64,000 bases of DNA, taken from Burkholderia oklahomensis C6786 (GTDB lineage: Bacteria; Pseudomonadota; Gammaproteobacteria; Burkholderiales; Burkholderiaceae). Below, piece after piece: positions 40,969 through 64,000 of the stretch. Positions within the stretch are counted from its first letter, which is position 1; each line of letters opens with the position of its first letter. The stretch is taken from the NCBI RefSeq assembly GCF_000959365.1, contig NZ_CP009556.1, positions 1 to 64,000 on the forward strand, in the 5' to 3' direction. Below the pieces are notes generated by a model, which was not told the origin of the DNA, did no database searches, and saw nothing but the letters and a program-made list of their open reading frames with translations. The position numbers and the translations under genes are program-made.

Positions 40969-43900
40969 ATGAGGCAAATAGTTTCCACGAGCGACGGATC
41001 CCTCGACAGCCAGGCCCGGATCATTGCGTTCCCGTTCGCGGGCGGAAGCGATTCCAGTTACGGGGACATCGCACGCGAGCTCGGCGACGCGTTCGCATTC
41101 ACGACGCTCAGTCTGCCCGGGCGCGGCGCGGCGCAGCACATCCCGTTCTACGACGACTGGCCGTCGCTCGTCGACGATCTCGCGGCCGAGATCGTGCGGC
41201 TCGACGACGGGACGCCGCTGTTCCTGTTCGGCCATAGTCTCGGCGCGCTGCTCGCGTACGAAGTCGCGCGTGTGCTCGAGCAACGGAGCGGCGTGCAACC
41301 GGCCGGCCTGTTCCTGTCCGGCCATCCCGCGCCTGCGCGCGAACGCGCCACCGACGCGTGGCGTCGGCAGACGCACACGCTGCCCGATGCGGATTTCATC
41401 GAAGCCGTGCGGCGCTGGGGCTTCTTCCCCGACGGCGCGCTCGACGATCCCGACGTCGCGCGCTACGTCCTCCCGCCGCTCAGAGCGGACCTTCGGCTCG
41501 CGGAGACCTACCGGCATGCGCCCGGCGATGCGCTGCGTGCGCATTGCGTGATCTACGGCGGCGCCGCCGATCCGAGCACGACCGTCGACGACCTGCGCGC
41601 CTGGCGCGCGCACGTTTCGCCGCGACACGCGTGCCCGGTCGAAGTGTTCGACGGCGACCATTTCTATTTTCTCGACGCGCCGTCCCGCGCGGCGCTGTGC
41701 GCGAGTCTCGCCGGCCACGCCGAGCGACGCCTCGCGGACCGTCCCGCGTCGATCGTCACGGCGACGCCCGATTCGAACACGCGCGTCGCGGCGTGTCTGC
41801 GCGCCGCGGACGATTGGGGCGATGCGCATTCGGTGCTCGCCGCGATTCGCGAGCGCGTCGCGCGCACGCCCGATGCGCTCGCGTTGCAGGACGGCGCGCG
41901 CACGTGGACCTATCGCGAGCTCGCGTCGCACGCGGCCGAGCTCGCCGACGCGCTGCGCGCGGCGGGCGTCGGCCGGCAGGACGTCGTCGGCGTCTTGTTG
42001 CCGCACGGCGCGGAGTACGTGCTGACGATCGTCGCCGCCTGGTCGATCGGCGCGTCGGTGTGCCTGCTCGAAAAGAGCTGGCCCGACACGCTCGTCGGCG
42101 AATTCGTCGCGAGCTGCCGCGTCAAGCAGATCGCGACGATCCCGGCGCTGCTCGCGCGCGCGAGCAAGCATCTGCCCGCCTCGCGCTGCACGCTCGTCGG
42201 CGCGTCGCCGGCGCGCGCGGATCGCGCCTGGACGCCCGTTGCGCCGCGCCGCGACGACATCGCGTTCGTTTCGCTGACGAGCGGCTCGACGGGCAAGCCG
42301 AAGGCCGTCCTCACGACGCACGTCGGCACGAGCTATTGCTTCCATGCGCGCGACGCGCTGTATCCGTACGCCGACGACGAGCGCGAAGGGCTCAACGTCT
42401 TTCTCGCCTGGGAATGCCTGCGTCCGCTGATGTTCGGCCGCCCGGCCGTCGTCATCGGCGACGACGTGATCTTCGATCCGCCGCGGCTCGTCGCGCTGCT
42501 GCGGCAGGCGCGGATCACGCGGCTCGTCGTCACGCCATCGCTGCTCGAAAGCGTGCTCGATTTCCCGGGCATCGCCGCGCAATTGCGCGACGCGCTCGCG
42601 CACATGTCCGCGTGGTTCCTGATGGGCGAAGTCGTGCCGCAGCGCGTCGTCGACAAGGCCCGCGCGGCGTTTCCGCCGTCGGTGCGGCTCGTGAACGCGT
42701 ACAGCACGTGGGAAAGCCTCGACGTCTGCTATGCGGACCTGCTGCCGTCGCGGAGCGACGCCGGCGGGCGGCGCGTGCCGATCGGGCGGCCGTTGCCCGG
42801 CTGCGCGCTCGCGGTGCTCGACGAAGCGGGACGCGCGGTGCCGGCGGGCGCGACGGGCGAGCTCCATGTCGCGTCGCCCGGCCTCGGGCCCGGCTATCTC
42901 GACGACGCGGCCCGCACCGCCGAGAAGTTCCTGCCGTCCGTGCGCGCGCTCGCCGAGCGCGGGCACGACACGCCCGTCTACCGGACGGGCGACCGCGCGC
43001 GGCTGCTGCCGGACGGCCAGATCGCGATCCTCGGCCGCATCGACAACACGGTGAAGATCCGCGGCTTCAAGGTGCTGCTGCATGCGATCGAGAACGTGCT
43101 CGACGCGGTCGACGGCGTCAGCAAGTCGCTCGTCGTGCCGATCGACGATCCGCACACGCGGCAGCCGTCGGCGCTCGCCGCCTACGTCGTCGGCCACGAC
43201 GGCGCGCCGTCCGAGACGACGCTTGCGCGGCTGCGCCAGCAGGCGCGCGCGAAGCTGCCCGAATACGCGGTGCCCGCGCATTTCATCGGCCTCGACGCGT
43301 TTCCGCTGCGCGCGGGCACGTCGCGCAAGCTCGACAAGCACGCGCTGCCGCCGCCCCCGGCATCGGCCGCGCCGCCCGCCTCGCGCGACGCCGCGACGCC
43401 CGTCGCGGGCGACGGCCTCGAAGCGCGGCTCGCGGACGTCTGGCGCGACGCGCTCGGCGTCGAATCGGTCGCGCGCGACGATCATTTCTTCGAGCTCGGC
43501 GGCAATTCGCTGAGCGCGGCGAAGGTGGTCGGCCTGCTCGGCGAACGGCTCGGGCTCGCGCTCGCCGTCGTCGATCTGTATCAGCACAGCCGGCTGTGCG
43601 ATCTCGCCGATCACTGCCGCCGCTCGCGAGACGACGCGACGCGCCCGCGTGCGGACGAAGCCCGCGCATCGCGCGCGACGCCCGCCGCCGATGCGCCGAA
43701 GGTCGCGATCGTCGGCATGGCCGGACGCTTCCCCGGCGCCGATTCGATCAACGCGTTCTGGCACAACCTGACGCACGGCGTCGACAGTCTGTCGCGCTTC
43801 TCGCGCGAGCAGCTGCTCGCGAAGGGCGTCGACGCCGCGCAGCTCGATCATCCGGACTGGGTATCGGCCGCACAGGTCATCGGCGACGCCGACAAGTTCG

Positions 43901-46900
43901 ACGCGCTCTTCTTCGGCATCGGCTCGCGCGAAGCCGTGCTGATGGATCCGCAGCACCGGCTCTTCATGGAAGTCGCGTGGAGCGCGCTCGAGCAGGCGGG
44001 CTACGCGCGCAGCGACAACCGCTACCGCACGCGCACCGGCGTGTTCGCGAGCTGCGGGATCGACGGCTATCTCGTCCATCATCTGCAAGGCGGCGGCCTG
44101 CATACGCCGCTCGATCCGGGCCGGCTGATGCTCACCGAGATCGGCAACGAGAAGGATTACATCGCGACGCGCGTCGCGTACCAGCTCGATCTCGGCGGGC
44201 CCGCGATATCGGTCGGCGCGGCGTGCAGCAGCGCGCTCGTCGCGGTCGTGCAGGCGGCGCAGGCGATCCGCTCCGGCCAGTGCGAGATGGCGATCGCGGG
44301 CGCGTCCGCGCTGTCGTTCCCGAACTTCGGCTTCTGCCACGAGGACGGCCTCGTCGGCAGCGCCGACGGCCACGTGCGCCCGTTCGACACGCGCGCGAGC
44401 GGCACGCTGTTCGGCGACGCGGTCGGCGCGGTCGTGCTGAAGCGCCTCGATCTCGCGGAGGCGGACGGCGATCCGATTCTCGCCGTGATCTCGGGCGTCG
44501 GGCTGTCGAACGACGGCCGCATGAAGGCGGGCTACACCGCGCCGAACGCGGACGCGCAGCGGCGCGCTATCGTCGACGCGCTCGACATGGCCGGCGTGCG
44601 CTCCGAGCAGATTTCGTACGTCGAATGCCATGCGACCGCGACGCTGATCGGCGACGCGATCGAGCTGAAGGGACTCTCCGACGCATTCGCGCAGACGCGC
44701 GGCGGCGACGCGCCCATCGCGGGCAGCTGCGCGATCGGCTGCGTGAAGGGCAACATCGGTCACGCGAACTGCGCGGCCGGAATCACGGGGCTCATCAAGA
44801 CGGTGCTGCAGCTCCAGCACCGGCAGCGCGTGCCGACCGTGCATTTCGACACGCTCAATCCGAAGCTCGTGCCGTTCGTCGAGCACGATGCGTCGCCGTT
44901 CGTCGTGCAGCGGCACGGCGGCGACTGGACGGTCGCCGATCCGTCGATGCAATTGCCGCGGCGCGCCGGCGTGTCGAGCTTCGGGATCGGCGGCACCAAT
45001 GCGCACGTGATCGTCGAGGAAGCGCCCGCGCGCGCCGCCGCGCCCGCCGACGGCACGCCGCGCGCGCGCCATCTGATGACCGCCTCCGCGCGCTCGCCGG
45101 GTGCGCTCGCGCGCCATCTGCGCGCGCTCGCCGAGCGCGTCGCGACGATGGACGCCGCCGAACTCGCGTGCGGCGCGTACACGCTGCACGTCGCGCGCGA
45201 AGCGCATCCGCTGCGCGTCGCGCTCACCGTGCCCGCGCAGCCGGCCGAAGCAGCCGCCGCGCTTCGCTCGAACGCCGGCGCGCTTGCCGACTCGCTCGAT
45301 ACACCCGACGCGCTCGACGCCCCCGTTCGCGCGAAGCCGGGCGCAACCGTCGCGTTCTGCTTCTCGGGACAGGGCTCGCAGCATCCGGGCATGGCGCGCG
45401 AGCTCTATCGATCGAACGCGGAAGCCGGCCGCTTCCGTCATCACTTCGACGCCGCGTGCGCGGCGCTCGAACGCGCGCTCGGCATGCCGATCGCGAGCGC
45501 GATCCTCGACGCCGACGACACCGAGATGCGTCGTCCGCTCGTCACGCAATGCGGGCTGTTCGCGGTCGAACATGCGCTCGCGTCGGTGCTCGGCGAATAC
45601 GGCGTGCGGCCCGTCGCCGTCGCGGGACACAGCATCGGCCAGTACGCGGCCGCCGTCGTCGCCGAGGCGCTCACGCTCGATCAGGCGGCCGCGCTCGTCG
45701 CCGCGCGCGCGAGCGCGACGCAGGCGCTGACGACGTTCGCCGCCGCCGACGGCACGCGCGCGCGCGGCGGCATGCTCGCCGTCACGGGCGACGAAGCGCG
45801 CGTCGAGCAGTGGGTCGCGCGGCGCGCCGACATCTGGATCGCGGTGCGCAACGCGCCGCGCGCGCTCGTGCTGGCGGGCGCCGAGCCGGCGCTCGCGGAC
45901 GCCAGGCGCGCGCTCGCCGCGCTCGACTGCCAATGCCGGCCGGTGCCGGTATCGCATCCGTTCCATACGCCGCTGATGCAGCCCGTCGCCGATGCGATCG
46001 GCGCGCGGCGCATCGAAGGCGCGGCGCCGCGGATGCCGATGACGTGCAACGTGTCGGGCGGCTGGCTCGGCGCCGATGCGGCGTCGGCCGACTACTGGGC
46101 GCGCCATCTGCTCGCGCCGGTGCGCTGGTCGGACAACGTCGCGGCGCTGCTGCGCTGGAAGCCGGACGTCGTGCTCGAAATCGGCCCCGGCACCGTGCTG
46201 TGCAGCCTGCTCGGCAAGCATCTCGCGGCCGGGGCGAACGCCCTCGCATCGGCGGATGCGGATGAGCAGGCGGCGACGATCGCGCCGCGCGTGCTGTCGT
46301 CGCTGCCCGCCGCGCGCAGCGACGCGGACGACGCCGATCATTTCAGCAACATGCTCGGCGAATTGTGGTGCGCCGGCGTGCCGATCGATTGGCGCGCGTA
46401 TCACGCACACGAAGCGGCGTCGCCCGGCCGCGCGCTGGCTCGCACGCCGCTGCCCGGCTATTCGTTCGAGCGCGACAGCTATTGGACGCGGCCGGAAGCG
46501 TCGATCTACGTCGATGCGCCGTCTGAATCGGCTGAATCCGCTGAATCCGCGACGCCGGCGAGCCGCGCGGCCGATGCGACGAATGCGGCGAACACGGCGA
46601 TCGCGTCGAACGCCGCAACCGCAGCGTCGGCGTGCACGTGCACCGCGGAATCGCGATCGTGCGGCGCTGCCTGTCACGACGCCGCCTTCGACTGCGACAT
46701 CGCGTCGCCGCAAGCCCCCGCGTCGCGCTGGCTCGCGCGCCTCAGGCCGCGCCGCCGGCCGCGGATGAAGCTGTACTGCTTCCCGTACGCAGGCGGCAGC
46801 AGCCGCAGCTTCGACGGCTGGGCGCGCATCGCGCCGGATTGGCTCGACATCGTCGCGATCGAATGGCCGGGCCGCAACGCGCGCGCCGAAGCGCCGCTCG

Positions 46901-49248
46901 CGCGCGACGACGCCGACGATCTCGCCGCCCGCGACGCGATTGCCGCCGCGATCGTCGCGGACGCGGGCGAATTGCCCGTCGCGTTCTGCGGCTTGAGCTA
47001 CGGCGGCGCCGCCGCGACCGACTTGCTGAGCGGGCCGCTGCGCGCCTGGGCCGCGAGCGGCCGGGTGAAGGGGCTCGTCGTCGTCGGACGCGCGCCGCTC
47101 CTCGAACAGCCGGCGATCGACGCGCCGGCGGACAGCTTCCTGCTCGTCCCCGACGCGCTGCGCGACGATCCGCTGTGGCAGGAAGTCTTCCGGCCGGTGC
47201 TCGAAGCCGACCTCGACGCCGACACGCGCACCGCGCACCGAATCGCGCAACGCTGGCGCGACGGCGGCGAGCATCCGCTGCTGACGATCCCGCTGCAGAT
47301 CCACGGCGGCGCCGACGATCCGGCGTTCGACTGGCGGCTCGCCGGCGACTGGGCGCAGATCTCGTCCGCGCCGCTTGCGGGCCGGCACGTCTATCCGGGC
47401 GGCCACGATTTCATGATGCGCTGCGAATCGGAGATCGTCTCGCGCGTGGCCGCCTGGCTGCGGCCGCAGCGCGCGGCGCACGCGACGGCGCCCGCACCGA
47501 CGTTCGCGCTGCATTGGCAACCGCGTCCGGTCGCACCCGAAGCGGCCGAAGCAACGCCCGAAACAACGCCCGCGCGGCCCGAATGCGCGGTCTACGCGAC
47601 GGGCCGCGAAGCCGACGCGCTCGAATGGCTCATGCCGCGTCTGCGCGCGGGCGACGGCCATGCGGCGCTGCTGTGCGTCGGCGCGGGCGACGATCCGCTC
47701 GGCGTCGCGCAATGCGCGGGCTTCGTCGGATTGTGGCAGACGCTCGCCGCGCGCGAATGCGCGGGCGTGCTGACGCTGCTGCTGCCGGCCGATGCGCGCA
47801 GCGGCCCGCTCGTCGGCGCGGCGCGCGTCGCGAGCGCCGAGCATGCGGCGCTGCGCGTGCGGCTCGTCCTCGCCGACGATCATCCGGATCTCGCGCCGCG
47901 CGCCGCCGATTTGCGCTGGGCCGCCGCGCTCGCGCGCGACGCCGCGAGCTTCGCGGAAGAACCCTGGCTGCTGCGCCGCGACGGCCGGATGTTCGTGCCG
48001 CGCCTGATGCCGCACGCGGCGCCGGCGCTGCCCGAAGGCACGCTCGGCGCGGCAGGCGGCCCGTATCTCGTCACCGGCGCGGCGGGCGGCCTCGGCCGCG
48101 CGCTCGTCGACTGGCTGATCGACGAACAGCAGGTGCCGCCGCACCGGATCGTCGCACTGTGCCGCGACGCCCGCACCGCGCCGCGCGGCGTGCGCGCCGT
48201 CGCGGCCGATCTCGCCGACGCGCGCGCGCTCGACGCCGCGCTCGAATCGATCGGCTCGGTCGAAGGCGTCTTCCATCTGGCGGGCGTGCTGGACGACGGC
48301 GTCATCGGCAATCTCGACGACGCGCGGCTGCGCCGCGTGCTCGCGCCGAAGCAGAGCCTCGCCGCGCTGCTCGCGCACGCGCCGCGCTGGCGCACGCGCT
48401 GGGCGGTCGCGTTCTCGTCGACGAGCGCGCTGCTCGGCGTGCCGGGACAGGCGAATTACGCGGCCGCGAACGCGTGGCTCGATCAGCTCGCGTGCTGGCC
48501 CGCCCAACCGGGGCAGCCGGCCGTGCTGAGCATCCAATGGGGCAGTTGGGCCGACGTCGGCATGAGCGCGCGCAGCGACCGGGCGCTGCGTCGCGCGATT
48601 CAGGACGGCGAGCGCCCGCTCGCGCCCGACGCCGCGTTCGCCGCGCTCGGCGCGCTGCTTGCCGGCGCGCTCGGCGGTGCGCTGCCCGGCCGCCAGTTCG
48701 CGGTCTGCGACGTCGACTGGCCGCGCTCGCCGTGGCGCGACGCGCCGGTCGTCGCCGCGCTCGCGCACGAAGGCGCGTCCGTTGCCGCGGCGGCGCGCGA
48801 CACGGCGAATCGAACGAACACGGCGAGCACGACCGGCGCGGCGGCGATCGCGATGTCCGACGCGTCCGCTTCCGCGTCCGGGAAAGCGGCCGGCATTTCC
48901 GCCGATTCCGACTCCGGTTCCGGTTCCGCACGGCCGGCGCGCCCGACTCACGAACGCGCGCACCTCGCAGCCGCGACTTCCGCTTCGTCGCCGGCCGCTC
49001 GGGCGATGCCGTCCGCCAGCGCACGCGACCCCGTCCGCGCGTTCCTCGAAGACTACGTGAGCCGATGGGACGAGCGGCTCGATCTCGCGACGCTCGGGCT
49101 CGATTCGCTCGATCTCGCGCAGATGCGAAACGGCTTTTTCAAGAAATTCGGTGTGCAGATACCGCTTTCGACGCTCGCATCGCCGACGCTGAAGATCGGC
49201 GAGCTGGCCCGCCGGATGCGGAACGTCGCCGGCATCGCGGACGAGTAG
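40969..49248 (+). CDS. burA: Hybrid NRPS-PKS BurA/MalA (TE-A-PCP-KS-AT-TE-KR-ACP)
   Basis: 2759 residues. Order: thioesterase (about 10-260, FGHSLGALLAYEVAR, Ser90); adenylation (about 285-790, TSGSTGKPK near 436); PCP (GGNSLS, Ser847); ketosynthase (911-1340, GAACSSA, Cys1086); acyltransferase (GHSIGQY, Ser1555; SHPFHT suggests malonyl); a second thioesterase (about 1925-2165, CGLSYGG, Ser2010); ketoreductase (GAAGGLG near 2370, QANYAAAN); ACP (LGLDSL, Ser2713). The known role of BurA is to activate dimethylsulfoniopropionate, add one malonate unit and reduce the ketone to gonyol, released by a thioesterase; the domains fit. The ATG at 40969 has CGGAG 8 bases upstream. Two thioesterases in one chain are unusual. 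Ser/Ala/Glu-rich linkers lie near 1850 and 2615-2690. Confidence 0.93.
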   Translation: MRQIVSTSDGSLDSQARIIAFPFAGGSDSSYGDIARELGDAFAFTTLSLPGRGAAQHIPFYDDWPSLVDDLAAEIVRLDDGTPLFLFGHSLGALLAYEVARVLEQRSGVQPAGLFLSGHPAPARERATDAWRRQTHTLPDADFIEAVRRWGFFPDGALDDPDVARYVLPPLRADLRLAETYRHAPGDALRAHCVIYGGAADPSTTVDDLRAWRAHVSPRHACPVEVFDGDHFYFLDAPSRAALCASLAGHAERRLADRPASIVTATPDSNTRVAACLRAADDWGDAHSVLAAIRERVARTPDALALQDGARTWTYRELASHAAELADALRAAGVGRQDVVGVLLPHGAEYVLTIVAAWSIGASVCLLEKSWPDTLVGEFVASCRVKQIATIPALLARASKHLPASRCTLVGASPARADRAWTPVAPRRDDIAFVSLTSGSTGKPKAVLTTHVGTSYCFHARDALYPYADDEREGLNVFLAWECLRPLMFGRPAVVIGDDVIFDPPRLVALLRQARITRLVVTPSLLESVLDFPGIAAQLRDALAHMSAWFLMGEVVPQRVVDKARAAFPPSVRLVNAYSTWESLDVCYADLLPSRSDAGGRRVPIGRPLPGCALAVLDEAGRAVPAGATGELHVASPGLGPGYLDDAARTAEKFLPSVRALAERGHDTPVYRTGDRARLLPDGQIAILGRIDNTVKIRGFKVLLHAIENVLDAVDGVSKSLVVPIDDPHTRQPSALAAYVVGHDGAPSETTLARLRQQARAKLPEYAVPAHFIGLDAFPLRAGTSRKLDKHALPPPPASAAPPASRDAATPVAGDGLEARLADVWRDALGVESVARDDHFFELGGNSLSAAKVVGLLGERLGLALAVVDLYQHSRLCDLADHCRRSRDDATRPRADEARASRATPAADAPKVAIVGMAGRFPGADSINAFWHNLTHGVDSLSRFSREQLLAKGVDAAQLDHPDWVSAAQVIGDADKFDALFFGIGSREAVLMDPQHRLFMEVAWSALEQAGYARSDNRYRTRTGVFASCGIDGYLVHHLQGGGLHTPLDPGRLMLTEIGNEKDYIATRVAYQLDLGGPAISVGAACSSALVAVVQAAQAIRSGQCEMAIAGASALSFPNFGFCHEDGLVGSADGHVRPFDTRASGTLFGDAVGAVVLKRLDLAEADGDPILAVISGVGLSNDGRMKAGYTAPNADAQRRAIVDALDMAGVRSEQISYVECHATATLIGDAIELKGLSDAFAQTRGGDAPIAGSCAIGCVKGNIGHANCAAGITGLIKTVLQLQHRQRVPTVHFDTLNPKLVPFVEHDASPFVVQRHGGDWTVADPSMQLPRRAGVSSFGIGGTNAHVIVEEAPARAAAPADGTPRARHLMTASARSPGALARHLRALAERVATMDAAELACGAYTLHVAREAHPLRVALTVPAQPAEAAAALRSNAGALADSLDTPDALDAPVRAKPGATVAFCFSGQGSQHPGMARELYRSNAEAGRFRHHFDAACAALERALGMPIASAILDADDTEMRRPLVTQCGLFAVEHALASVLGEYGVRPVAVAGHSIGQYAAAVVAEALTLDQAAALVAARASATQALTTFAAADGTRARGGMLAVTGDEARVEQWVARRADIWIAVRNAPRALVLAGAEPALADARRALAALDCQCRPVPVSHPFHTPLMQPVADAIGARRIEGAAPRMPMTCNVSGGWLGADAASADYWARHLLAPVRWSDNVAALLRWKPDVVLEIGPGTVLCSLLGKHLAAGANALASADADEQAATIAPRVLSSLPAARSDADDADHFSNMLGELWCAGVPIDWRAYHAHEAASPGRALARTPLPGYSFERDSYWTRPEASIYVDAPSESAESAESATPASRAADATNAANTAIASNAATAASACTCTAESRSCGAACHDAAFDCDIASPQAPASRWLARLRPRRRPRMKLYCFPYAGGSSRSFDGWARIAPDWLDIVAIEWPGRNARAEAPLARDDADDLAARDAIAAAIVADAGELPVAFCGLSYGGAAATDLLSGPLRAWAASGRVKGLVVVGRAPLLEQPAIDAPADSFLLVPDALRDDPLWQEVFRPVLEADLDADTRTAHRIAQRWRDGGEHPLLTIPLQIHGGADDPAFDWRLAGDWAQISSAPLAGRHVYPGGHDFMMRCESEIVSRVAAWLRPQRAAHATAPAPTFALHWQPRPVAPEAAEATPETTPARPECAVYATGREADALEWLMPRLRAGDGHAALLCVGAGDDPLGVAQCAGFVGLWQTLAARECAGVLTLLLPADARSGPLVGAARVASAEHAALRVRLVLADDHPDLAPRAADLRWAAALARDAASFAEEPWLLRRDGRMFVPRLMPHAAPALPEGTLGAAGGPYLVTGAAGGLGRALVDWLIDEQQVPPHRIVALCRDARTAPRGVRAVAADLADARALDAALESIGSVEGVFHLAGVLDDGVIGNLDDARLRRVLAPKQSLAALLAHAPRWRTRWAVAFSSTSALLGVPGQANYAAANAWLDQLACWPAQPGQPAVLSIQWGSWADVGMSARSDRALRRAIQDGERPLAPDAAFAALGALLAGALGGALPGRQFAVCDVDWPRSPWRDAPVVAALAHEGASVAAAARDTANRTNTASTTGAAAIAMSDASASASGKAAGISADSDSGSGSARPARPTHERAHLAAATSASSPAARAMPSASARDPVRAFLEDYVSRWDERLDLATLGLDSLDLAQMRNGFFKKFGVQIPLSTLASPTLKIGELARRMRNVAGIADE

Positions 49249-49347
49249 ATCCGCCCATCCCGTCACCCGCGCATTCCGACGCGGCCGCAAAGAAGAGGTC
49301 CGCCGGGTCTTCCCGCCCGGCGCACGAACCCAGTCAAGGAGAGCAGC

Positions 49348-49866
49348 ATGACGATCACCCTCATCGATCCTGTCCAGCAACGCACGGGAATCTATCCGTC
49401 ACCCGACCTGAAGGTCGAGGACGGCTATCCGTCGACCGACACGTTCCAGATCATCCAGACGCAGGACGGTCGCGGCGCGGGCGTCCGCGTCCTCCGTGCG
49501 TTCGCGCGCGGCCGGCGGATGGCGCGCGTGTCCGGGCAGATCACCGCGTTCTGCCGGCTGCACACGCTGCAGATCAACGCGCACACGCATCTGTACGACC
49601 CGCACTTCAGCGGCCTGCTGCTCCATTCGTGCGATCCGAACGTGCGCCTCGACATGGCGGGATTCGAGCTGTGGTCGCTGCGCGACATCGCGCCGGGCGA
49701 GATGCTGACGATGGACTACGCGTCGACCGAGGACGTGCTGATGCGCCAGTTCGAGTGCCACTGCGGCGCGCCGAACTGCCGGCGCTGGATCACCGGCGCG
49801 AAGGAGCTGCCGAACGAAAACGGGCTGGCGCTCCTCGCCGGCTTGCGGACCGCCGTGCCCGCCTGA
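49348..49866 (+). CDS. burB: SET-domain methyltransferase-like protein BurB
   Basis: 172 residues. SET-domain motifs: LLLHSCDPNVRLDM (the NHSCxPN block), GEMLTMDYAS (the GEELTxDY block) and a post-SET zinc cluster CHCGAPNC. SET domains normally methylate protein lysines with S-adenosylmethionine. In the bur pathway the methyltransferase step is S-methylation of methionine on the way to dimethylsulfoniopropionate, and this is the only free-standing methyltransferase candidate here, so a small-molecule role is inferred. Spacing: 99 bp after burA, with AAGGAGAGCAGC before the ATG. A protein-modifying role remains possible. Confidence 0.85.
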   Translation: MTITLIDPVQQRTGIYPSPDLKVEDGYPSTDTFQIIQTQDGRGAGVRVLRAFARGRRMARVSGQITAFCRLHTLQINAHTHLYDPHFSGLLLHSCDPNVRLDMAGFELWSLRDIAPGEMLTMDYASTEDVLMRQFECHCGAPNCRRWITGAKELPNENGLALLAGLRTAVPA

Positions 49867-51545: not shown

Positions 51546-51553
51546 GGCTTCCG

Positions 51554-54384: not shown

Positions 54385-54426
54385 CGCGCACCGCGTGCTT
54401 TTTCGAACCCGACACAGACGATTCCC

Positions 54427-57400: not shown

Positions 57401-60400
57401 CGCTCGCGGTCGGCCGCGAAGAAGTGCTCGCCGAGTTCGACGCGGCGGCGCTCGCGCGCACGACGGACGACGCGCGGCTCGTCGCGCTGCTCGACGGCGC
57501 GTTCCAGGCGATCGCGGGCCTGCAGCTCGCGGATGCGGGACGCATCGACGGCGCGCTCCTGCCCGCGGCGCTCGCGCGCATCGAATTCGTCGGGCCGCTC
57601 GCGGACAGCGTCCATGCATGGATTCGCGAAGTGCCGGCCGCGTCGGGCCGCCGCACGTTCGATCTCGATCTCGTGACCGCGCGCGGCGCGCGGTGCGCGT
57701 CGCTGCGCGGCCTCGCGCTTGCGTCGGGACGGCGCGCGGCGTCACGCGACGCGCCGCGGCTCGCGACGCCCGGCGAGCATCTGCTCGCGCCGCAGTGGCT
57801 GCCGTGCGCGGCGAACGCGGCGACGCACGCGCCGCGCACCGCCAGGCTGACCGTATTGGGCGGCACGCCCGCCCAGCGCGCCGCGCTCGCGGCGACGCAC
57901 CCGGCATTGCGCGCGATCGACGACTTGGCCGAACTCGATGCGCACGTCGAGCATCTCGTCTGGCTGCTGCCCGCGGCAACGGATACGCTCGCGCGACGCG
58001 CGGGCCTCGACGGCTTCCGGCTCGTCAAGCGGTTGCTCTCGCTCGGCGCGGGCGACCGCGCATTCGAGCTGACCGTGCTGACCGCGCGCTCGTGGACGAT
58101 GCCGGGCGACACGCCCGCATTCCCCGCGCACGCGGACCTCGCCGGGCTGTGCGGGTCGCTCGCGAACGAATATCCGCATTGGCGCGTGCGGCTGTTCGAT
58201 CTGTCCGACGCCGACGCGCTGCCCGCCGACTGGCGGACGCAGGACGCCGAAGGCGGCCACCCGCTGCTGCTGCACCGGCACGGCCAATGGTTCGCGCGCC
58301 GGCTCGTGCCGCTCGCGGCGCTGCCCGCGCGCGCCGAGCCGCCGTACCGGCCGGGCGGCGTCTATGTCGCGATCGGCGGCGCGGGCGGCATCGGCCGAGT
58401 CTGGACCGAGCATGCGATCCGCGCGTGCGGCGCGCAAGTCGTGTGGATCGGGCGGCGGCCGCTCGACGCGCAGATCGATGCGCACTGCGACACGCTCGCC
58501 GCGCTCGGCCCGCGCCCGTCGTATCTGAGCGCGGACGCGAGCGACATCGACAGTCTGCGCGCCGCGCGCGACGCCGTGCTCGAGCGCTTCGGCCGGATCG
58601 ACGGCGTCGTGCACACGGCGATCGTCCTTCAGGACGGCGGCCTCGCGCAGCAGGACGAAGCGCAGTTCAGCGCGGCGCTGAACGCGCAGGTCGCGACGAC
58701 CGCGAACCTCGCGAGCGCGTTCGGCAACGATGCGCTCGACTTCATCCTGTTCTTCTCGTCGCTGCAAAGCGCGTTCGTCGCGGCGGGCCAGAGCAATTAC
58801 GCGGCGGGCTGCACGTTCCGCGACGCGTTCGCCGATTGGCTGCGCACGCAGGTCCGGTGCGCGGTCAAGGTCGTGAGCTGGGGCTACTGGGGGCAGACGG
58901 GCGTCGTCGCGTCCGAGCCGTACCGTCAGCGGATGGCCGCGCTCGGCATCGGCTCGATCGAGCCGGCGGCGGCGATGGCGGTCGTCGACGCGCTGCTCGG
59001 CGCGCCCGTCGATCAGGTCGGCTACCTGAAGACGATCGCGAGCGCGGCGGTGCCGACGCTCGCGCCCGCGCTCGCGGCCCGCGTCGCGCCGCCCACCGAC
59101 GCGCTCGCCGATGCGCCGCTGCCGCGCGTCGACGCGACGGGCGACAGTGCGCCATGGCAACATGCGCTCGCCGCGCTCGATCGCGCGATCGCGCGCCGCC
59201 TGTTCGCGGAGCTCGCGGCGCTGCGCGTGTTCGGCGACGGCGAGGACGACGACGTGGCGACGGTGAATGCCGATGCCGCGCGCACGGATGCGTCGATCGA
59301 TGAGACGACGACACGCGTTGACGCATCCGACGATCGCGACAATCGCGACAATCGCAACGATCGCGACGATCGCGACGACGCACACGACGACGCACACGCG
59401 GATCCGCGCGAATGCGCGTCGGCCCGCGATGCCGCGCAACTCGGCGCATCGTTCGACATCGACGCCGCGCTGCGCTCGGGCCGCATCGCGCCCGCGTACC
59501 GGCGCTGGCTCGTGCACGCGCTGACGCTGATCGCGCGACACGGCTGCCTCTCCTGGGACGGCCGCACGGGCCGCGTCGCCGAACCGCCGCCGTCGCTGGA
59601 CACGGCGCGCGCGGAATGGACGGAAGCCCGCGCCGGCCTCGCACGCACGGCGCTGCTGAACGCCCACCTCGCGCTCGCCGACGCGGCGCTCGACGCGCTG
59701 CCCGCGATCCTGCAAGGCCGCGTGCCCGCAACGTCGATCCTGTTCCCCGACGGCGACCTGAGCCGCGTCGAAGCCGTCTATCAGCGCAACGAGCAGGCGG
59801 ACCGCTGCAACCGCGCGCTCGCCGATGCGGTGCTGCACCTCGTCGGCGGCACGAGCGCCCGCCGGCCGGCGACACTCGCCGAGATCGGCGCGGGCACGGG
59901 CGGCACCACCGCGCCGCTTCTCGCGGCGCTCGACGCGCGCGGCGCGCGGCTCGGCCGCTACGACTTCACCGACATCTCGAAGGCGTTCCTGCTGAACGCC
60001 GAGCAATCGTTCGGCCGCGGCCGCGACATGCTGCGCTACCGGCTGTTCGACGTCGAGCGGCCCGTCGGCGAACAATCGCTCGACGCCGGCGGCTACGACA
60101 TCGTGATCGCGACCAACGTGCTGCACGCGACGCAGGACATCGGCGTCACGCTGCGCAACGCGAAGGCGCTGCTGAAGACGGGCGGCCATCTGATCGTCAA
60201 CGAACTGCTCGACACGCACGGCTTCGCGCATGCGACGTTCGGCCTGCTGCCGGGCTGGTGGCGGCATCGCGACAGCGAGCGCCGCCTGCCGGGCAGCCCG
60301 CTGCTGTCGCGCGAAGGCTGGACGCATGCATTGCGCGAGGCCGGCTTCACGGTGCTCGACGGCGGCCCTGCCGACGGCGCGAGCGCCGGCCAGGGCGTGA

Positions 60401-63400
60401 TCGTCGCGATCAGCGACGGCGTGATCGTGCAGCCCGCGCCCGTCGATGCGCGCGAGCCGGCGCAAGTCGATGCGCAGCCGCGCGCGGCCGCCGCGACATC
60501 GCCCGGCGCAGCGCCGCGCACGATTTCGACCTCGTCGCCGGCCGCGCCGGCAGCCGGCGCGAACCTGCGCGAGCGCTGCCTGCAATGGCTGACGCAACTC
60601 GTCGCGCGGACGCTGAAAACGCCGGCCGGCAAGCTCGCGCCGGATCAACCGCTCGGCGGCTACGGCGTCGACTCGATTCTCGTGATCGGCCTGACGAAGA
60701 CGCTGCGCGAAACGTTCGGCGTCGCGCTGTCGAACGCGACGCTGTTCGAGCACGCGACGCTGGATGCGCTCGCCGATTTCTTCGTCGCCGAGCATCGCGC
60801 CGCGTGCGAGCGCGTGCTCGGCAACGAAGCGGCTGCCGCCGCGCACACGTCGCCGGCTGAACGCGCAGCCGCGCAGCCGTGCGCGACCGGCCGCGCATCC
60901 TGCGACGCGCCAGCGCCCGCGCCCACGTCCGCATCGACGATGCCGGATCGAGCCGCATCGAGCGAGCGCGCATCGCACCCGGCGACGCCGGCAACGCTTC
61001 CGCACGCACTCCGCGCGGCGCCCGCGAGCGCCGACGACACGGCGGTCGCCGTGATCGGCATGTCGGGCCGCTACGCACAGGCGGACAACCTGCGCGAGTT
61101 CTGGGACAACCTCCGCGCGGGCCGCCACTGCATCACCGAGGTGCCCGCCGAGCGCTGGGACTGGCGCACGCACTTCGACGCGGAGAAAGGCACGCCCGGC
61201 CGCACGTACAGCCGCTGGGGCGGCTTCCTCAGGCAGATCGACCGCTTCGACGCCGCGTTCTTCCGGATCGCGCCGAGCGACGCGGAGAACATCGATCCGC
61301 AAGGCCGCCTGTTTCTCGAGGAATCGTGGGCCGCGATCGAAGACGCGGGCTACACGCCCGCGACGCTCAGCGCGAACCGCCAGGTCGGCGTGTTCGTCGG
61401 CGTGATGAACGGCGGCTACCCGACGGGCGCGCAGTTCTGGAGCATCGCGAACCGCGTGTCGCACGCGCTCGACCTGCACGGGCCGAGCCTCGCCGTCGAC
61501 ACCGCGTGCTCGTCGTCGCTGACCGCGATTCATCTCGCGCTCGAAAGCCTGCGCAGCGGCACCTGCGACTGCGCGCTCGCGGGCGGCGTCAACCTGATTC
61601 AGAGTCCGAAGCATCTGGTCGGCCTGTCGTCGCTGACGATGCTGTCGGCGGGCGACGCGTGCCGCGCGTTCGGCGCGGGCGCGGACGGCTTCGTCGACGG
61701 CGAAGGCGTCGGCGTGCTCGTGCTGAAGCCGCTGTCGCGCGCGCTCGCAGACGGCGACGCGATCCACGGCATCATCCGCGGCAGCATGATCAACGCGGGC
61801 GGCAAGACGCACGGCCTCACCGTGCCGAATCCGCGCGCGCAGCAGGCGGTCGTCGACGCGGCGCTCGCGAGAAGCGGCGTGCCCGCGCGCGCGGTCGGCT
61901 ACATCGAGGCGCACGGCACCGGCACCGCGCTCGGCGATCCGATCGAGCTCGCCGGCCTCACGCGCGCGTTCGCCGCAACCACCGCCGATCGCGGCTTCTG
62001 CGCGCTCGGCTCGGTCAAGTCGAACATCGGCCATTGCGAGAGCGCGGCGGGCATCGCGGGCGTGACGAAAGTGCTGCTGCAAATGAAGCATCGCGAGCTC
62101 GTGCCGACGCTGCACGCGGACGAGACGAATCCCGACATCGATTTCGCGCAATCGCCGTTCGTGCTGCAGCGCCGGCTCGCGCCGTGGCCGAAGCCGGACA
62201 CGGGCGGTTGGCCGCGGATCGCGGGCGTGTCGTCGTTCGGCGCGGGCGGCGCGAACGCGCACGTCGTGCTCGAAGAGTTCGTCGACGCGCGCGTCGCAAC
62301 CGATGTCGACGCCTCCGGCCCCGCGATCATCGTGCTGTCCGCCGCGACCGACGACGCGCTGCGCCGCCGCGCGCGGCAGCTTCACGCGGCGCTCGCCGGC
62401 GGCGAAATCGGCGCGGATCGTCTGCACGACCTCGCGTACACGCTGCAAGCCGGCCGCGAGGCGATGGCCGCGCGCTTCGGCTGCGTCGCCGGCTCCGTCG
62501 CCGCGCTGCAGGCGACGCTCGCGGCGTTCGTCGAAGGCGACGCGTCGCACGGCTGGCACGCGCATCGGCTCGCCGCCGACCGGCAGGGCCTCGCCGAGCT
62601 CGACGCCGATCCCGAGTTGCGCGCGTCGCTCGTCGACCAATGCATCGCGAGCGGCAAGCTCGACAAGCTCGCGGCGCTCTGGTGCCAGGGGCTCGGCGTC
62701 GACTGGTCCGCGCTGCATCGCGGCCGCACGCGCCGGCGCATTCATCTGCCGGCCTACCCGTTCGACGGCCCGAGCTACTGGTTCCGCGACGACGACGCGC
62801 TCGCCGCCGAGCCGGCGCATCGCCGCGCGATCGAGCCCACGCGCGATGACGCGGTTGCGGCAAGCGGCGCGAGCGTCGACGCGCCGGCCGCCTCGACGCC
62901 CGACGTCGCGGCGCTCGTCCGCCGGACGGTCGCGCAAGTGCTTGGCTATCCGGACGTCGACATGGGCGAGTCGTTCTTCTCGCTCGGCGGCGATTCGATC
63001 CGCGCGGCGCGCGTGCATCGGACGCTGCAGCAGGCGCTCGGCGTGAAGATTCCGCTCAGCCTGATGCTGGAAGCGAAGACGCTCGCGGAATGCGCGCGCG
63101 CGATCGACGCGCTGGTTCCGGCCGAGCGGCCGTCGGCGACCGGCGTGTCCGCTACCGGCACGTCCGCGAGCGGCACGTCCGCTACCGGCACGTCCGCGAG
63201 CGGCAAGCCCGCATCCGGCGCGCGCGCATCCGAACCGAAAACGCCATCCGCGCACGAATCGGCATCGCAGACACGCCCCGCCCCCATCCCGCGCGACGCC
63301 AGCCCGCGCGTGCACACGCTGTCGTCGAACCAGCAGCAGTTTTTCTTCCTCGATCGCCTGAATCCCGCGAATCCGGCGTTCAACCTGCCGGGCGCGCTGC

Positions 63401-64000
63401 GCGTGCGCGGCGAATGGCACGCGGATGCACTCGAAGCCGCGTACCAGACGCTCATCGATTCGCACGACGTGCTGCGCACCCGCTTCGTCGTGCGCGGCGG
63501 CGAGCCGTGCGCCGAAGTCGCGCCGCACCGCACGGCGGCGATCCGCCATCACGACCTGTCCGCACTGCTGCCGAAGCACCAGGCCGCGCGCATCGCCGAA
63601 TGCCTGACGGAGTCGAGCCGCGAAGGCTTCGCGCTCGAACAGGGCGAGCCGAGTCGTCTGACGGTGCTCGAATTGCGCGATGACGACCACGTGATCCTGC
63701 TGAACCTGCATCACATCGTCGGCGACGCGGTGTCCGTCGTCGTGCTGCTCGACGCGCTCGCGCGCGCCGCGCTGACAGGCCGCGTGCCCGCGCCGTGCGC
63801 CGAGCACCCGCAATACGCGGAGTGGGCCGCGCGCGAGCACGAGCAGTTGCCCGAGGTCGTCGAACGCGAGCTGCCGTACTGGCTCGATCGCCTGCGCGAC
63901 GTGCCGCCGCCGCTGCCGCTGCCGTGCGATCGCGCGCGACCGCCCGTGCCGAGCTATCGCGGGCAGAGCGTGCCGCTCGCATTCCCGGCGGAACTGACCG
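54427..64000 (+). CDS. burF: Hybrid PKS-NRPS BurF (ACP-KS-DH-KR-MT-ACP-KS-PCP-C..., cut by window end)
   Basis: Partial: 3191 codons are open to the window edge. Order: ACP (GFDSL, Ser46); KS1 (172-600, DTACSSS, Cys330); DH (about 790-1090, His802 in DHRLAGEP, YGPTF, Asp1023); KR (GGAGGIG near 1316, Tyr1458); C-methyltransferase (EIGAGTGG from 1819); ACP (GVDSI, Ser2083); KS2 (from 2207, Cys2361); PCP (GGDSI, Ser2857); condensation domain (LHHIVGD, His3095, His3096, Asp3100). Neither module has its own acyltransferase between KS and the next domain, so loading in trans is implied. Acidic or Ser-rich linkers made of in-frame DNA repeats interrupt the chain near 609-628, 900-920, 1636-1660 and 2908-2927. 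Start: ATG at 54427. Confidence 0.93.
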   Translation, partial: MTASTPSRELATAVEAAVLSLAGDVAGRPFDASAAERPLHALGFDSLQYVELSGRLNEYYGLDLAPTLFFDVHAPRRIAAYLLARHAAEVVRKHDGAIENENETDAAAGASAAAPDGRAEAEADAARPVTAQQAVDAQRADAPLRDARAATAQHDASRDEANEDTHDEAATDVAIVGMAGLFPQSADLAEFWRHLAAGDDLIAETPPSRWDWRAVDGEPASRWGGFIPRIEYFDAAFFGISPREAEQMDPQQRLLLQTAWAALEDAAIRPSDLMGSDAAVFVGVSTSDYLDLLPGADGHLAVGNAHAMLPNRLSHLLGTHGPSEVVDTACSSSLVALHRAVRALRRGESGVAIVGGVNVMLTTRLHRALAAAGMLSPDGRCKTFDASANGYVRGEGVAALVLMPLERARAGRHPVLAVIKGSAINHGGRAAFLTAPDVNAQAALIEAAYRDAGVDPATVSYVEAHGTGTSLGDPIEVQALRQGFDACARERADARAPARCGLGSVKTNIGHLEAAAGLAGVVKVVLAMNRRMLPPSLHCREPNPYLKLDDSRYHIVTEPTPWPGDATPTPLRAGVSSFGFGGSNAHVVLQSADARPADGADSSRPASVSESISESISESISESVSESVSASANAADATDSPTWFIPLSARTDTALRERAAQLARWLDAERADDSLLPAIAKTLSIGREPMARRFGVTCASLDALRAQLAIALDGNAEALARDDARLRPHAPAHAAWLAGEPAPLPVAWRDATPRLRLPVYPFEGERHWPTDEATPSRFALAPAGEGAYRLHIAPDAPLVADHRLAGEPVLAAAAQIVIAWRALETHTSAGGAHSASGPGESHESNGSHDSDRSNDLNDSRHSIDGIDASAATHVALHDIEWLAPIAIGAPTDLHVTLARDEDEDEDEDRNDDDDRDGDEGAARFAIAIPPAIDTPLGRGRATRAASSRSAAPAFDIAAIRARCTQPISADACYDAFAAIGIDYGPTFRPLRALAVGREEVLAEFDAAALARTTDDARLVALLDGAFQAIAGLQLADAGRIDGALLPAALARIEFVGPLADSVHAWIREVPAASGRRTFDLDLVTARGARCASLRGLALASGRRAASRDAPRLATPGEHLLAPQWLPCAANAATHAPRTARLTVLGGTPAQRAALAATHPALRAIDDLAELDAHVEHLVWLLPAATDTLARRAGLDGFRLVKRLLSLGAGDRAFELTVLTARSWTMPGDTPAFPAHADLAGLCGSLANEYPHWRVRLFDLSDADALPADWRTQDAEGGHPLLLHRHGQWFARRLVPLAALPARAEPPYRPGGVYVAIGGAGGIGRVWTEHAIRACGAQVVWIGRRPLDAQIDAHCDTLAALGPRPSYLSADASDIDSLRAARDAVLERFGRIDGVVHTAIVLQDGGLAQQDEAQFSAALNAQVATTANLASAFGNDALDFILFFSSLQSAFVAAGQSNYAAGCTFRDAFADWLRTQVRCAVKVVSWGYWGQTGVVASEPYRQRMAALGIGSIEPAAAMAVVDALLGAPVDQVGYLKTIASAAVPTLAPALAARVAPPTDALADAPLPRVDATGDSAPWQHALAALDRAIARRLFAELAALRVFGDGEDDDVATVNADAARTDASIDETTTRVDASDDRDNRDNRNDRDDRDDAHDDAHADPRECASARDAAQLGASFDIDAALRSGRIAPAYRRWLVHALTLIARHGCLSWDGRTGRVAEPPPSLDTARAEWTEARAGLARTALLNAHLALADAALDALPAILQGRVPATSILFPDGDLSRVEAVYQRNEQADRCNRALADAVLHLVGGTSARRPATLAEIGAGTGGTTAPLLAALDARGARLGRYDFTDISKAFLLNAEQSFGRGRDMLRYRLFDVERPVGEQSLDAGGYDIVIATNVLHATQDIGVTLRNAKALLKTGGHLIVNELLDTHGFAHATFGLLPGWWRHRDSERRLPGSPLLSREGWTHALREAGFTVLDGGPADGASAGQGVIVAISDGVIVQPAPVDAREPAQVDAQPRAAAATSPGAAPRTISTSSPAAPAAGANLRERCLQWLTQLVARTLKTPAGKLAPDQPLGGYGVDSILVIGLTKTLRETFGVALSNATLFEHATLDALADFFVAEHRAACERVLGNEAAAAAHTSPAERAAAQPCATGRASCDAPAPAPTSASTMPDRAASSERASHPATPATLPHALRAAPASADDTAVAVIGMSGRYAQADNLREFWDNLRAGRHCITEVPAERWDWRTHFDAEKGTPGRTYSRWGGFLRQIDRFDAAFFRIAPSDAENIDPQGRLFLEESWAAIEDAGYTPATLSANRQVGVFVGVMNGGYPTGAQFWSIANRVSHALDLHGPSLAVDTACSSSLTAIHLALESLRSGTCDCALAGGVNLIQSPKHLVGLSSLTMLSAGDACRAFGAGADGFVDGEGVGVLVLKPLSRALADGDAIHGIIRGSMINAGGKTHGLTVPNPRAQQAVVDAALARSGVPARAVGYIEAHGTGTALGDPIELAGLTRAFAATTADRGFCALGSVKSNIGHCESAAGIAGVTKVLLQMKHRELVPTLHADETNPDIDFAQSPFVLQRRLAPWPKPDTGGWPRIAGVSSFGAGGANAHVVLEEFVDARVATDVDASGPAIIVLSAATDDALRRRARQLHAALAGGEIGADRLHDLAYTLQAGREAMAARFGCVAGSVAALQATLAAFVEGDASHGWHAHRLAADRQGLAELDADPELRASLVDQCIASGKLDKLAALWCQGLGVDWSALHRGRTRRRIHLPAYPFDGPSYWFRDDDALAAEPAHRRAIEPTRDDAVAASGASVDAPAASTPDVAALVRRTVAQVLGYPDVDMGESFFSLGGDSIRAARVHRTLQQALGVKIPLSLMLEAKTLAECARAIDALVPAERPSATGVSATGTSASGTSATGTSASGKPASGARASEPKTPSAHESASQTRPAPIPRDASPRVHTLSSNQQQFFFLDRLNPANPAFNLPGALRVRGEWHADALEAAYQTLIDSHDVLRTRFVVRGGEPCAEVAPHRTAAIRHHDLSALLPKHQAARIAECLTESSREGFALEQGEPSRLTVLELRDDDHVILLNLHHIVGDAVSVVVLLDALARAALTGRVPAPCAEHPQYAEWAAREHEQLPEVVERELPYWLDRLRDVPPPLPLPCDRARPPVPSYRGQSVPLAFPAELT
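56251..56310. repeat. Five 12-bp repeats inside burF
   Basis: TCCGAATCC[AG]TC five times, encoding SESI three times and SESV twice in the linker after KS1. The period is a multiple of three, so copy change keeps the frame. Confidence 0.9.
57124..57147. repeat. Four GACGAA repeats inside the burF DH region
   Basis: It encodes alternating Asp-Glu at residues 900-907, followed by more acidic residues: an acidic insert in the dehydratase domain between the His802 region and Asp1023. Confidence 0.85.
59332..59376. repeat. Five 9-bp repeats inside burF
   Basis: Variants of GATCGCGAC, encoding Asp/Asn-Arg-Asp triplets from residue 1636 in the KR-MT linker, followed by GACGACGCACAC-type repeats. 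In frame. Confidence 0.85.
63148..63207. repeat. Two 30-bp repeats inside burF
   Basis: Each copy encodes SATGTSASG plus Thr or Lys, in the linker between the PCP and the condensation domain. In frame. Confidence 0.85.

What the first reader, a model, noticed from the sequence alone, without database searches (positions are those of the whole stretch)
40969..64000. Left part of a malleilactone/malleicyprol-type assembly line whose BurA domains match sulfonium-acid (gonyol) chemistry
The order A-PCP-KS-AT-KR-ACP plus thioesterase in BurA is what is needed to load dimethylsulfoniopropionate, add one malonate, reduce the ketone and release a beta-hydroxy sulfonium acid. burB-burE supply methyltransferase, oxygenase, aminotransferase and aldehyde dehydrogenase activities. 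Onium-acid loading is almost unique among thiotemplate systems. The pathway logic comes from published bur/mal work; the fit is read from this sequence.
Basis: partly seen in the sequence, partly recalled or inferred. Interest (0 to 1): 0.8.

Follow-up and report, generated by a model that had tools for sequence, protein, structure and literature searches.

The report
Known malleicyprol cluster; BurA has relatives
This stretch is the first half of the published malleicyprol gene cluster of the Burkholderia pseudomallei group, so the finding is right but known; distant relatives of its first enzyme look as if they make carnitine from glycine betaine, which would be new.

Summary
Window 40969-64000 carries burA-burE and most of burF, in open frames and in the published order. 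The A domain has the published zwitterion marks.

Corrections: BurA has two thioesterase domains, one N-terminal and one between AT and KR; both motifs are kept in 8 of 8 full-length BurA-type proteins compared. BurC is a gonyol hydroxylase, not a DMSP supplier. Onium-acid loading is not almost unique: bur-type loci, complete or partial, occur outside Burkholderia.

Beyond the window, rhizobial plasmids and a Magnetococcales genome encode TE-A-PCP-KS-AT-KR-ACP enzymes (30-33% identity to BurA) whose A domains share the marks (16 of 16 with the bur type, against 0 of 6 controls). In the Magnetococcales genome the enzyme lies with glycine/sarcosine and sarcosine/dimethylglycine methyltransferase-like genes and a carnitine acyltransferase-family gene. 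I propose that it builds carnitine from glycine betaine and malonate. This is inference from genome context.

The parts
39051..40028 (-). LuxR-type regulator gene (autoinducer-binding plus GerE domains in residues 108-319 of this frame; true start probably later); position fits malR, a name I recall
   Evidence: Pfam PF03472 1.1e-34 and PF00196 4.1e-18
40969..49248 (+). burA, gonyol synthetase, 2759 aa, TE-A-PCP-KS-AT-TE-KR-ACP
   Evidence: Pfam; alignment with 7 relatives
41017..41676 (+). BurA N-terminal thioesterase TE1, GHSLG motif
   Evidence: Pfam; nearest solved structure RifR 119.6 bits
41848..43308 (+). BurA adenylation domain; no FDxSxxE motif, pocket Asp in the STWESLD motif
43426..43614 (+). 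BurA peptidyl carrier domain (GGNSL)
43699..45216 (+). BurA ketosynthase with its C-terminal extension (ACSS, CHATAT, NIGH)
45355..46257 (+). BurA acyltransferase, GHSIGQ and HPFH motifs
46723..47448 (+). BurA internal thioesterase TE2 between AT and KR, GLSYGG and GGHDF motifs (boundaries approximate)
   Evidence: second Pfam Thioesterase stretch; kept in 8 of 8 full-length proteins
48058..48555 (+). BurA ketoreductase with LDD motif (B type by recalled rule)
49027..49218 (+). BurA acyl carrier domain (GLDSL), boundaries approximate
   Evidence: second PP-binding stretch
49348..49866 (+). burB, SET-domain methionine S-methyltransferase by homology, 172 aa
   Evidence: PF00856; PDB 9l4t 361.6 bits
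50250..50379 (.). CGGCTT hexamer array, 21.7 copies, in the 656-bp burB-burC gap
50520..51545 (+). burC, TauD-family dioxygenase (gonyol hydroxylase by homology)
   Evidence: PF02668 5e-31; start
51554..52978 (+). burD, class III aminotransferase
   Evidence: PF00202 1.8e-84
52972..54384 (+). burE, aldehyde dehydrogenase
   Evidence: PF00171 3.9e-159
54427..64000 (+). burF, first 9.57 kb: ACP-KS-DH-KR-MT-ACP-KS-ACP-C(part), no acyltransferase domain found in this part

Best explanation
The region is the left half of a bur/mal (malleicyprol) cluster in a member of the Burkholderia pseudomallei group. BurB S-methylates methionine; a decarboxylase encoded beyond the window (BurI) plus BurD and BurE turn S-methylmethionine into dimethylsulfoniopropionate (DMSP). 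BurA adenylates DMSP with a zwitterion-type A domain, extends it with one malonate, reduces the ketone and releases S-gonyol, probably by one of its two thioesterases. BurC hydroxylates gonyol to gonydiol. A KARI relative beyond the window (BurG) makes the cyclopropanol acid, which is loaded on BurF and fused to the long chain. Shown by others for B. thailandensis: BurB, BurA-A, BurA, BurC and BurG activities and the last steps on BurF; BurI by a mutant that accumulates S-methylmethionine; BurD and BurE only by homology and a reduced yield in mutants. Shown here: the genes, domains, catalytic motifs and their conservation. Inferred here: that this strain's enzymes do the same, and that TE1 and/or TE2 releases the product.
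For: Domain and gene content; BurB like solved BurB; A-domain marks in the window and 8 other bur-type A domains, absent in 6 of 6 control A domains; motifs of both TEs, KS, AT, KR and carriers kept in 8 of 8 full-length BurA-type proteins down to 50% identity; burG, burI, burJ and trans-AT homologues downstream in G001; collinear ten-gene series on an Eleftheria plasmid. Published biochemistry: PMC7496086 (parts 1-2 of 3), PMC9359912 (section 8 and passages), PMC12304814 (part 1 of 4 and passages), PMC12790350 (passages), PMC12542666 (abstract, part 1 of the results).
Against: The window ends inside burF; burG onwards was not seen in this genome. I did not identify burH in G001: the frames scanned there gave no Pfam family. 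Window BurB differs from the crystallised B. thailandensis BurB at 12 of 170 residues (my count from the alignment), so the strain is probably not that species and its product is untested. The thioesterase assignment rests on motifs only.
Confidence: 0.96

Rival explanations
1. A bur-like cluster that has changed substrate, for example loading another betaine or an amino acid, and so makes a malleicyprol analogue.
For: BurA is only 90.8% identical to G001 BurA over aligned residues and BurB only about 93% to the characterised one.
Against: The A domain is 95% identical to that of G001, as high as the other catalytic domains (90-96%), and the FLAWE and STWESLD motifs are identical in the six Burkholderia proteins. 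burB-burE are all present.
Confidence: 0.03
2. TE1 is a type II-like editing thioesterase that clears wrongly primed carriers, and TE2 alone releases gonyol.
For: TE1 is closest to the stand-alone type II enzyme RifR (119.6 bits); TE2 is divergent (best 46.2 bits), better conserved than TE1 in Eleftheria (69% against 50%) and G139 (46% against 39%), and among the proteins compared was seen only in the bur type.
Against: The rhizobial and Magnetococcales relatives have the N-terminal TE only, so TE1 should be able to release there, unless release is in trans or spontaneous.
Confidence: 0.45
3. An ordinary amino-acid NRPS-PKS hybrid unrelated to onium acids.
For: The A domain finds amino-acid NRPS domains as its closest solved relatives.
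Against: FDxSxxE is absent and the pocket Asp present in the window, and the Asp is in 0 of 6 control A domains; the unrooted tree sets the 16 marked A domains apart from the controls with support 100/100; burB-burE lie beside it.
Confidence: 0.01

Closest known systems
bur/mal (malleicyprol, malleilactone) cluster of Burkholderia thailandensis
   Same: Genes, domain content, SET methyltransferase, zwitterion-type A domain, as described in PMC7496086, PMC9359912 and PMC12304814
   Different: BurB differs at 12 of 170 residues, so probably another species. The published cluster's DNA was not compared directly
Nearest held genome G001 and four other Burkholderia genomes
   Same: BurA 72-91% identical, both thioesterases, burB and burC adjacent
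   Different: The 656-bp burB-burC gap of the window holds a hexamer array that these five and Eleftheria lack
Eleftheria terrae plasmid NZ_CP106953.1 bur-type cluster
   Same: Ten genes in the order burA-burJ by annotation; BurA 63% identical
   Different: Outside Burkholderia, on a plasmid; product not known to me; the gene in burG position is annotated only as NAD(P)-binding and was not tested further
   Same: BurA 50%, BurB 60%, BurC 52%; same eight domains including both TEs
   Different: No burD, burE, burG or burI homologue found within 11.6 kb upstream of burA or about 19 kb downstream of burC; burF, burJ and AT queries matched only burA itself; burH was not tested. Predicted end product gonydiol
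Rhizobial and Magnetococcales TE-A-PCP-KS-AT-KR-ACP synthetases (L044, L045, L056, L057, L058, L059, L060)
   Same: A-domain marks, N-terminal TE, one PKS module with KR where the gene is full-length
   Different: 30-33% identity, no TE2, no LDD in the KR; carnitine-related neighbours in some
Fungal glycine betaine reductase ATRR
   Same: A domain for a quaternary ammonium acid; short loop instead of the D235 loop and a pocket acid (as stated in PMC7496086)
   Different: Reductive release and no PKS module (recalled); not compared here by sequence

Membership tests
bur/mal malleicyprol cluster | burA to burF in order on one strand | tested here: met
   burF incomplete at the window end
bur/mal malleicyprol cluster | burG (KARI) and burI (decarboxylase) downstream | tested here: inconclusive
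   Outside the window; both present in G001; the Eleftheria plasmid has an NAD(P)-binding protein and a decarboxylase in these positions by annotation
bur/mal malleicyprol cluster | malleicyprol production | not testable with these tools
   needs extracts
DMSP-type (zwitterion) A domain | no D235 loop (FDxSxxE absent, shorter loop) | tested here: met
   window FLAWE with a loop five residues shorter in the alignment; controls 6 of 6 have FD-type motifs
DMSP-type (zwitterion) A domain | acidic residue in the pocket (D606 of published BurA) | tested here: met
   Asp in STWESLD, window BurA residue 585 counted from the start at 40969 (NAYSTWESLD starts at 576). Equivalence to D606 is inferred from the motif, since published numbering differs
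DMSP-type (zwitterion) A domain | activates DMSP and not amino acids | not testable with these tools
   published for the homologue (PMC7496086)
SET-domain methionine S-methyltransferase (BurB) | sequence membership | tested here: met
   361.6 bits to 9l4t over 170 residues
SET-domain methionine S-methyltransferase (BurB) | methylates methionine to S-methylmethionine | not testable with these tools
   published for the homologue (PMC7496086, PMC12542666)
Carnitine synthetase (proposed, G201 type) | glycine betaine supply, zwitterion A domain, malonyl AT, KR, carnitine-using neighbour | tested here: inconclusive
   GSMT over its cut-off, SDMT-like protein below its cut-off, carnitine acyltransferase family, all beside the synthetase; AT has an AFH motif; activity untested

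The most novel reading that the evidence does not exclude
BurA belongs to a wider family of onium-acid synthetases with a nitrogen branch. In a Magnetococcales genome the BurA-like enzyme sits in an apparent operon with a glycine/sarcosine and a sarcosine/dimethylglycine N-methyltransferase-like gene, next to a carnitine acyltransferase-family gene. It would load glycine betaine, add one malonate, reduce the ketone and release carnitine: the nitrogen counterpart of DMSP to gonyol, and a de novo route to carnitine that needs no trimethyllysine or gamma-butyrobetaine.
Probability: 0.55. Interest if true: 0.8.

Novelty: already known. Interest (0 to 1): 0.4.

Why it matters
The window itself confirms a published virulence-factor cluster, with two small additions: two thioesterases in BurA at unusual places, and bur-type loci outside Burkholderia, on an Eleftheria plasmid and, in pieces, on a rhizobial plasmid. 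The wider lead matters more. If the relatives make carnitine from glycine betaine, one megasynthase architecture serves both sulfonium and ammonium osmolytes, and some bacteria make carnitine de novo in a way I know of no report for. One enzyme assay would decide it.

Tried and rejected
Structure prediction was not used: the sequence motifs and the published biochemistry already bear on the pocket question, and I did not expect a model alone to settle ligand choice.

The BurB homologue search (250 hits at E up to 1e-10, 120 listed) suggested wide spread. But of 6 genomes outside the genus with BurB relatives in the phylum sample, only G139 has burA and burC beside it and only G338 has a burI homologue beside it; the G338 burB match holds one TGA inside the aligned stretch. 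The other four (45-50% identity) have no bur neighbour in the fetched stretches apart from one generic 30% aldehyde dehydrogenase match, so I do not call them methionine methyltransferases.

The A-domain protein search for the Magnetococcales enzyme was swamped by multi-domain NRPSs: apart from the enzyme itself, the 120 listed of 2182 hits show no further protein with its domain set. Searches of that enzyme's order and class covered the same 48 genomes and gave no second full-length relative (one partial match, G260).

Results that limit the carnitine reading for rhizobia: the rhizobial AT has a VPSH instead of an AFH-type motif. Carnitine-dehydrogenase-like genes lie within about 10 kb of the synthetase in 3 of 6 plasmids examined. 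The three such genes from two plasmids that were scanned score 251-266 bits, below the curated cut-off of 414 for L-carnitine dehydrogenase; the third plasmid's gene is only 39-40% identical to them. Mesorhizobium 131-3-5 instead has a class I methyltransferase directly upstream and metE about 4.6 kb downstream, which could equally hint at sulfur. So I do not claim that the rhizobial product is plain carnitine. The second S. numidicum record (H30) was not examined.

Full report
OBSERVATION. Frame 40969-49245 (2759 aa) holds Thioesterase, AMP-binding, PP-binding, ketoacyl synthase, acyltransferase, a second Thioesterase stretch, KR and a second PP-binding stretch (window coordinates of the domains). 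Downstream on the same strand are burB (49348-49866, SET), burC (50520-51545, TauD family), burD (51554-52978, class III aminotransferase), burE (52972-54384, aldehyde dehydrogenase) and burF (54427 to the window end). A LuxR-type gene lies divergently upstream (39051-40028, minus strand). BurF in the window has KS, DH, KR, MT, KS, three carrier domains and the start of a C domain but no AT; G001 has a separate acyltransferase gene downstream, as expected for a trans-AT line.

WHOSE DNA. The window's own assembly is not held; the nearest genome, G001, shares 23% of sampled 31-mers and is about 91-94% identical in DNA over most of the cluster. BurB differs from the crystallised B. thailandensis protein at 12 of 170 residues (my count from the alignment). 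The species is therefore probably another near relative in the B. pseudomallei group, which I cannot name. Because it may be a listed pathogen I propose no bench test with its genes.

In G001 a KARI gene (PF07991 and PF01450) and a PLP-dependent decarboxylase gene follow burF, with an AMP-ligase gene and an AT gene. I did not identify burH there; the frames scanned gave no family. The window stops before this region. An Eleftheria terrae plasmid carries, by annotation, a collinear series: synthetase, SET protein, TauD dioxygenase, aminotransferase, aldehyde dehydrogenase, thioester-reductase megasynthase, NAD(P)-binding protein, FkbH protein, decarboxylase and AMP-binding protein.

THE A DOMAIN. 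PMC7496086 (parts 1 and 2 of 3 read) reports that BurA-A lacks D235, has a shorter loop there, has an acidic pocket residue (D606), and prefers DMSP. In the window the FDxSxxE motif is replaced by FLAWE, and an Asp (residue 585) stands in STWESLD. I took from all frames of the loci then held every A domain that matched the window's at E up to 1e-15 over more than 330 residues: 27 matches, 22 distinct with the window itself. FDxSxxE is missing in 16 of 16 bur-type, rhizobial and Magnetococcales domains, with a loop five residues shorter (seven in S. numidicum), and the Asp is present in all 16. The 6 controls all have FD-type motifs and none has the Asp. A maximum-likelihood tree puts the 9 bur-type, 7 rhizobial/Magnetococcales and 6 control domains on separate branches with support of at least 100/98. 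The marked rows were found by similarity to BurA or to one another, so the tree shows grouping, not an unbiased census.

TWO THIOESTERASES. Both TE motifs (GHSxG with a downstream DG-HF or EG-HF; GLSYG or GSSYG with HDF) are kept in 8 of 8 full-length BurA-type proteins, down to 50% identity. A piece of the split Rhizobium lusitanum gene also carries a TE beside KR. TE1 is nearest to the type II enzyme RifR; TE2 is a remote member. The word thioesterase does not occur in the main texts of PMC7496086, PMC12304814, PMC9359912 or PMC12790350. Supplements could not be read, and the original 2012 papers, which I recall, were not read. Since E. coli carrying burA and fed DMSP makes free gonyol (PMC7496086), one of the two presumably releases it, unless release is spontaneous or by the host; which one is open. 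The rhizobial and Magnetococcales relatives have one Pfam Thioesterase stretch, N-terminal, in 3 of 3 tested. The other four show a gap at TE2 in the alignment; S. numidicum is shortened there and says nothing.

STEREOCHEMISTRY. The KR has the LDD motif, by recalled rule a B-type KR giving a D-configured alcohol. Because sulfur reverses the priority of the two carbon arms, that configuration is named S in gonyol. PMC9359912 (passages read) reports that BurC acts on S-gonyol, which agrees. This is inference.

DISTRIBUTION. BurB at E up to 1e-20 is in 5 of 65 genus genomes and 7 of 398 phylum genomes including G001. Of the six hits outside the genus, G139 has burA-burB-burC; burD, burE, burG and burI homologues were not found within 11.6 kb upstream of burA or about 19 kb downstream of burC, and burH was not tested. 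G338 has a burB match (one TGA inside) beside a burI homologue. Four have no bur context in the fetched stretches. Rhizobium lusitanum plasmid p_4 carries a decarboxylase, a class I methyltransferase, a KARI fragment (112 bits, cut-off 336), burA in pieces and a TauD gene; it looks decayed or misassembled, and the pieces were searched apart. PMC9135737 (passages read) states that BurB occurs only in some Burkholderia and predicts NRPS-linked DMSP pathways with MmtN in S. mobaraensis and Agrobacterium vitis. PMC9359912 mentions nine other organisms with burG orthologues, whose names I could not see, so some of these loci may be among them. A malleilactone count for B. ubonensis is in print (PMC10826400, passages read).

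THE NITROGEN BRANCH. A plasmid search with BurA found stand-alone homologues in rhizobia. With the S. mexicanum protein as query, 7 plasmid records match at 60% identity or more, including the query's own record. The two scanned are TE-A-PCP-KS-AT-KR with two carrier stretches; the six examined are 31-33% identical to window BurA. Of these six, four are single full-length frames, AR07 is split in two and S. numidicum is shortened. A more distant full-length relative, G201 (30% to BurA, 37% to S. mexicanum), comes from a genome whose protein record is named Magnetococcales. Its gene (L060 5452-12645, minus) is followed after 20 bp by a glycine/sarcosine N-methyltransferase gene (NF051855, 464.9 bits, cut-off 350; PDB 5gwx 395 bits) and, 3 bp on, by a sarcosine/dimethylglycine methyltransferase-like gene (NF041675, 321 bits, below the cut-off of 550; PDB 2o57 217.5 bits). 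Ten bases beyond, on the other strand, is a choline/carnitine O-acyltransferase-family gene (PF00755, 2.3e-146). A gene with a mechanosensitive-channel domain lies on either side. In the sample of 398 phylum genomes PF00755 occurs in 2 and NF051855 over its cut-off in 4; G201 is in both lists. It is also the only genome there with a near-full-length non-bur synthetase match (which scored only two candidates per genome, so misses are possible). The coincidence was noticed after the fact, so no p-value is given. The simplest reading is glycine to glycine betaine to carnitine.

AGAINST THE NITROGEN BRANCH. It is one genome, 82% complete. The SDMT is below its cut-off. The KR type is unclear (no LDD). 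The acyltransferase family also covers choline. In rhizobia the AT motif is atypical, carnitine-dehydrogenase-like neighbours occur in only 3 of 6 plasmids and score below that family's cut-off where scanned, and one locus lies near metE and a methyltransferase gene.

LITERATURE FOR THE NITROGEN BRANCH. Five searches of the open-licence library listed no paper whose title or abstract start describes carnitine made by an NRPS-PKS. The 601-paper result was seen only for its top 25, as a search listing. A sixth search for BurA, MmtN and Rhizobium together found nothing. Papers outside that library were not searched.

HEXAMER ARRAY. The burB-burC gap is 656 bp in the window with 21.7 copies of CGGCTT; it is 393 (G001), 820 (G066), 53 (G019), 53 (G054), about 84 (G014) and 76 bp (Eleftheria). 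No exact tandem hexamer was found in these six gaps, though the G066 gap shows another short repeat. Whether the array changes burC expression is unknown.

VERDICT. The finding is correct and already published in substance. The onium-acid synthetase family around BurA, with a probable carnitine branch, is the part worth following.

Noticed in passing
L060 1879-12645 (G201): BurA-like synthetase in an apparent operon with glycine/sarcosine and sarcosine/dimethylglycine methyltransferase-like genes, beside a carnitine acyltransferase-family gene; proposed carnitine synthetase
   Followed up: yes
L044, L045, L056, L057, L058, L059: Rhizobial plasmids carry a BurA-like TE-A-PCP-KS-AT-KR-ACP gene (split in L059, shortened in L058), some near carnitine-dehydrogenase-like or phosphopantetheinyl transferase genes
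   Followed up: partly
L041 11972-40513: Ten-gene bur-type cluster on an Eleftheria terrae plasmid; an sfnG dimethylsulfone monooxygenase gene and ABC transporter genes lie upstream
   Followed up: partly
L031 11595-19901 and L032 1-1064: burA-burB-burC without burD, burE, burG or burI found nearby in G139: predicted gonydiol locus
   Followed up: partly
L038 14233-15923: burB-burI homologue pair in G338 (one TGA inside the burB match): possible DMSP precursor pathway
   Followed up: no
L043 5571-21935: Decayed or misassembled warhead-type cluster on a Rhizobium lusitanum plasmid, with a class I methyltransferase instead of a SET protein
   Followed up: partly
window 50250-50379: 21.7 copies of CGGCTT between burB and burC; no tandem hexamer in the same gap of six relatives
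   Followed up: partly
L033, L034, L036, L037, L040: BurB relatives of 45-50% identity in four genomes stand without bur genes in a neighbourhood that shares genes between them; in two (L037, L040) I recognise a carbonic anhydrase-like protein next to it; function unknown
   Followed up: no
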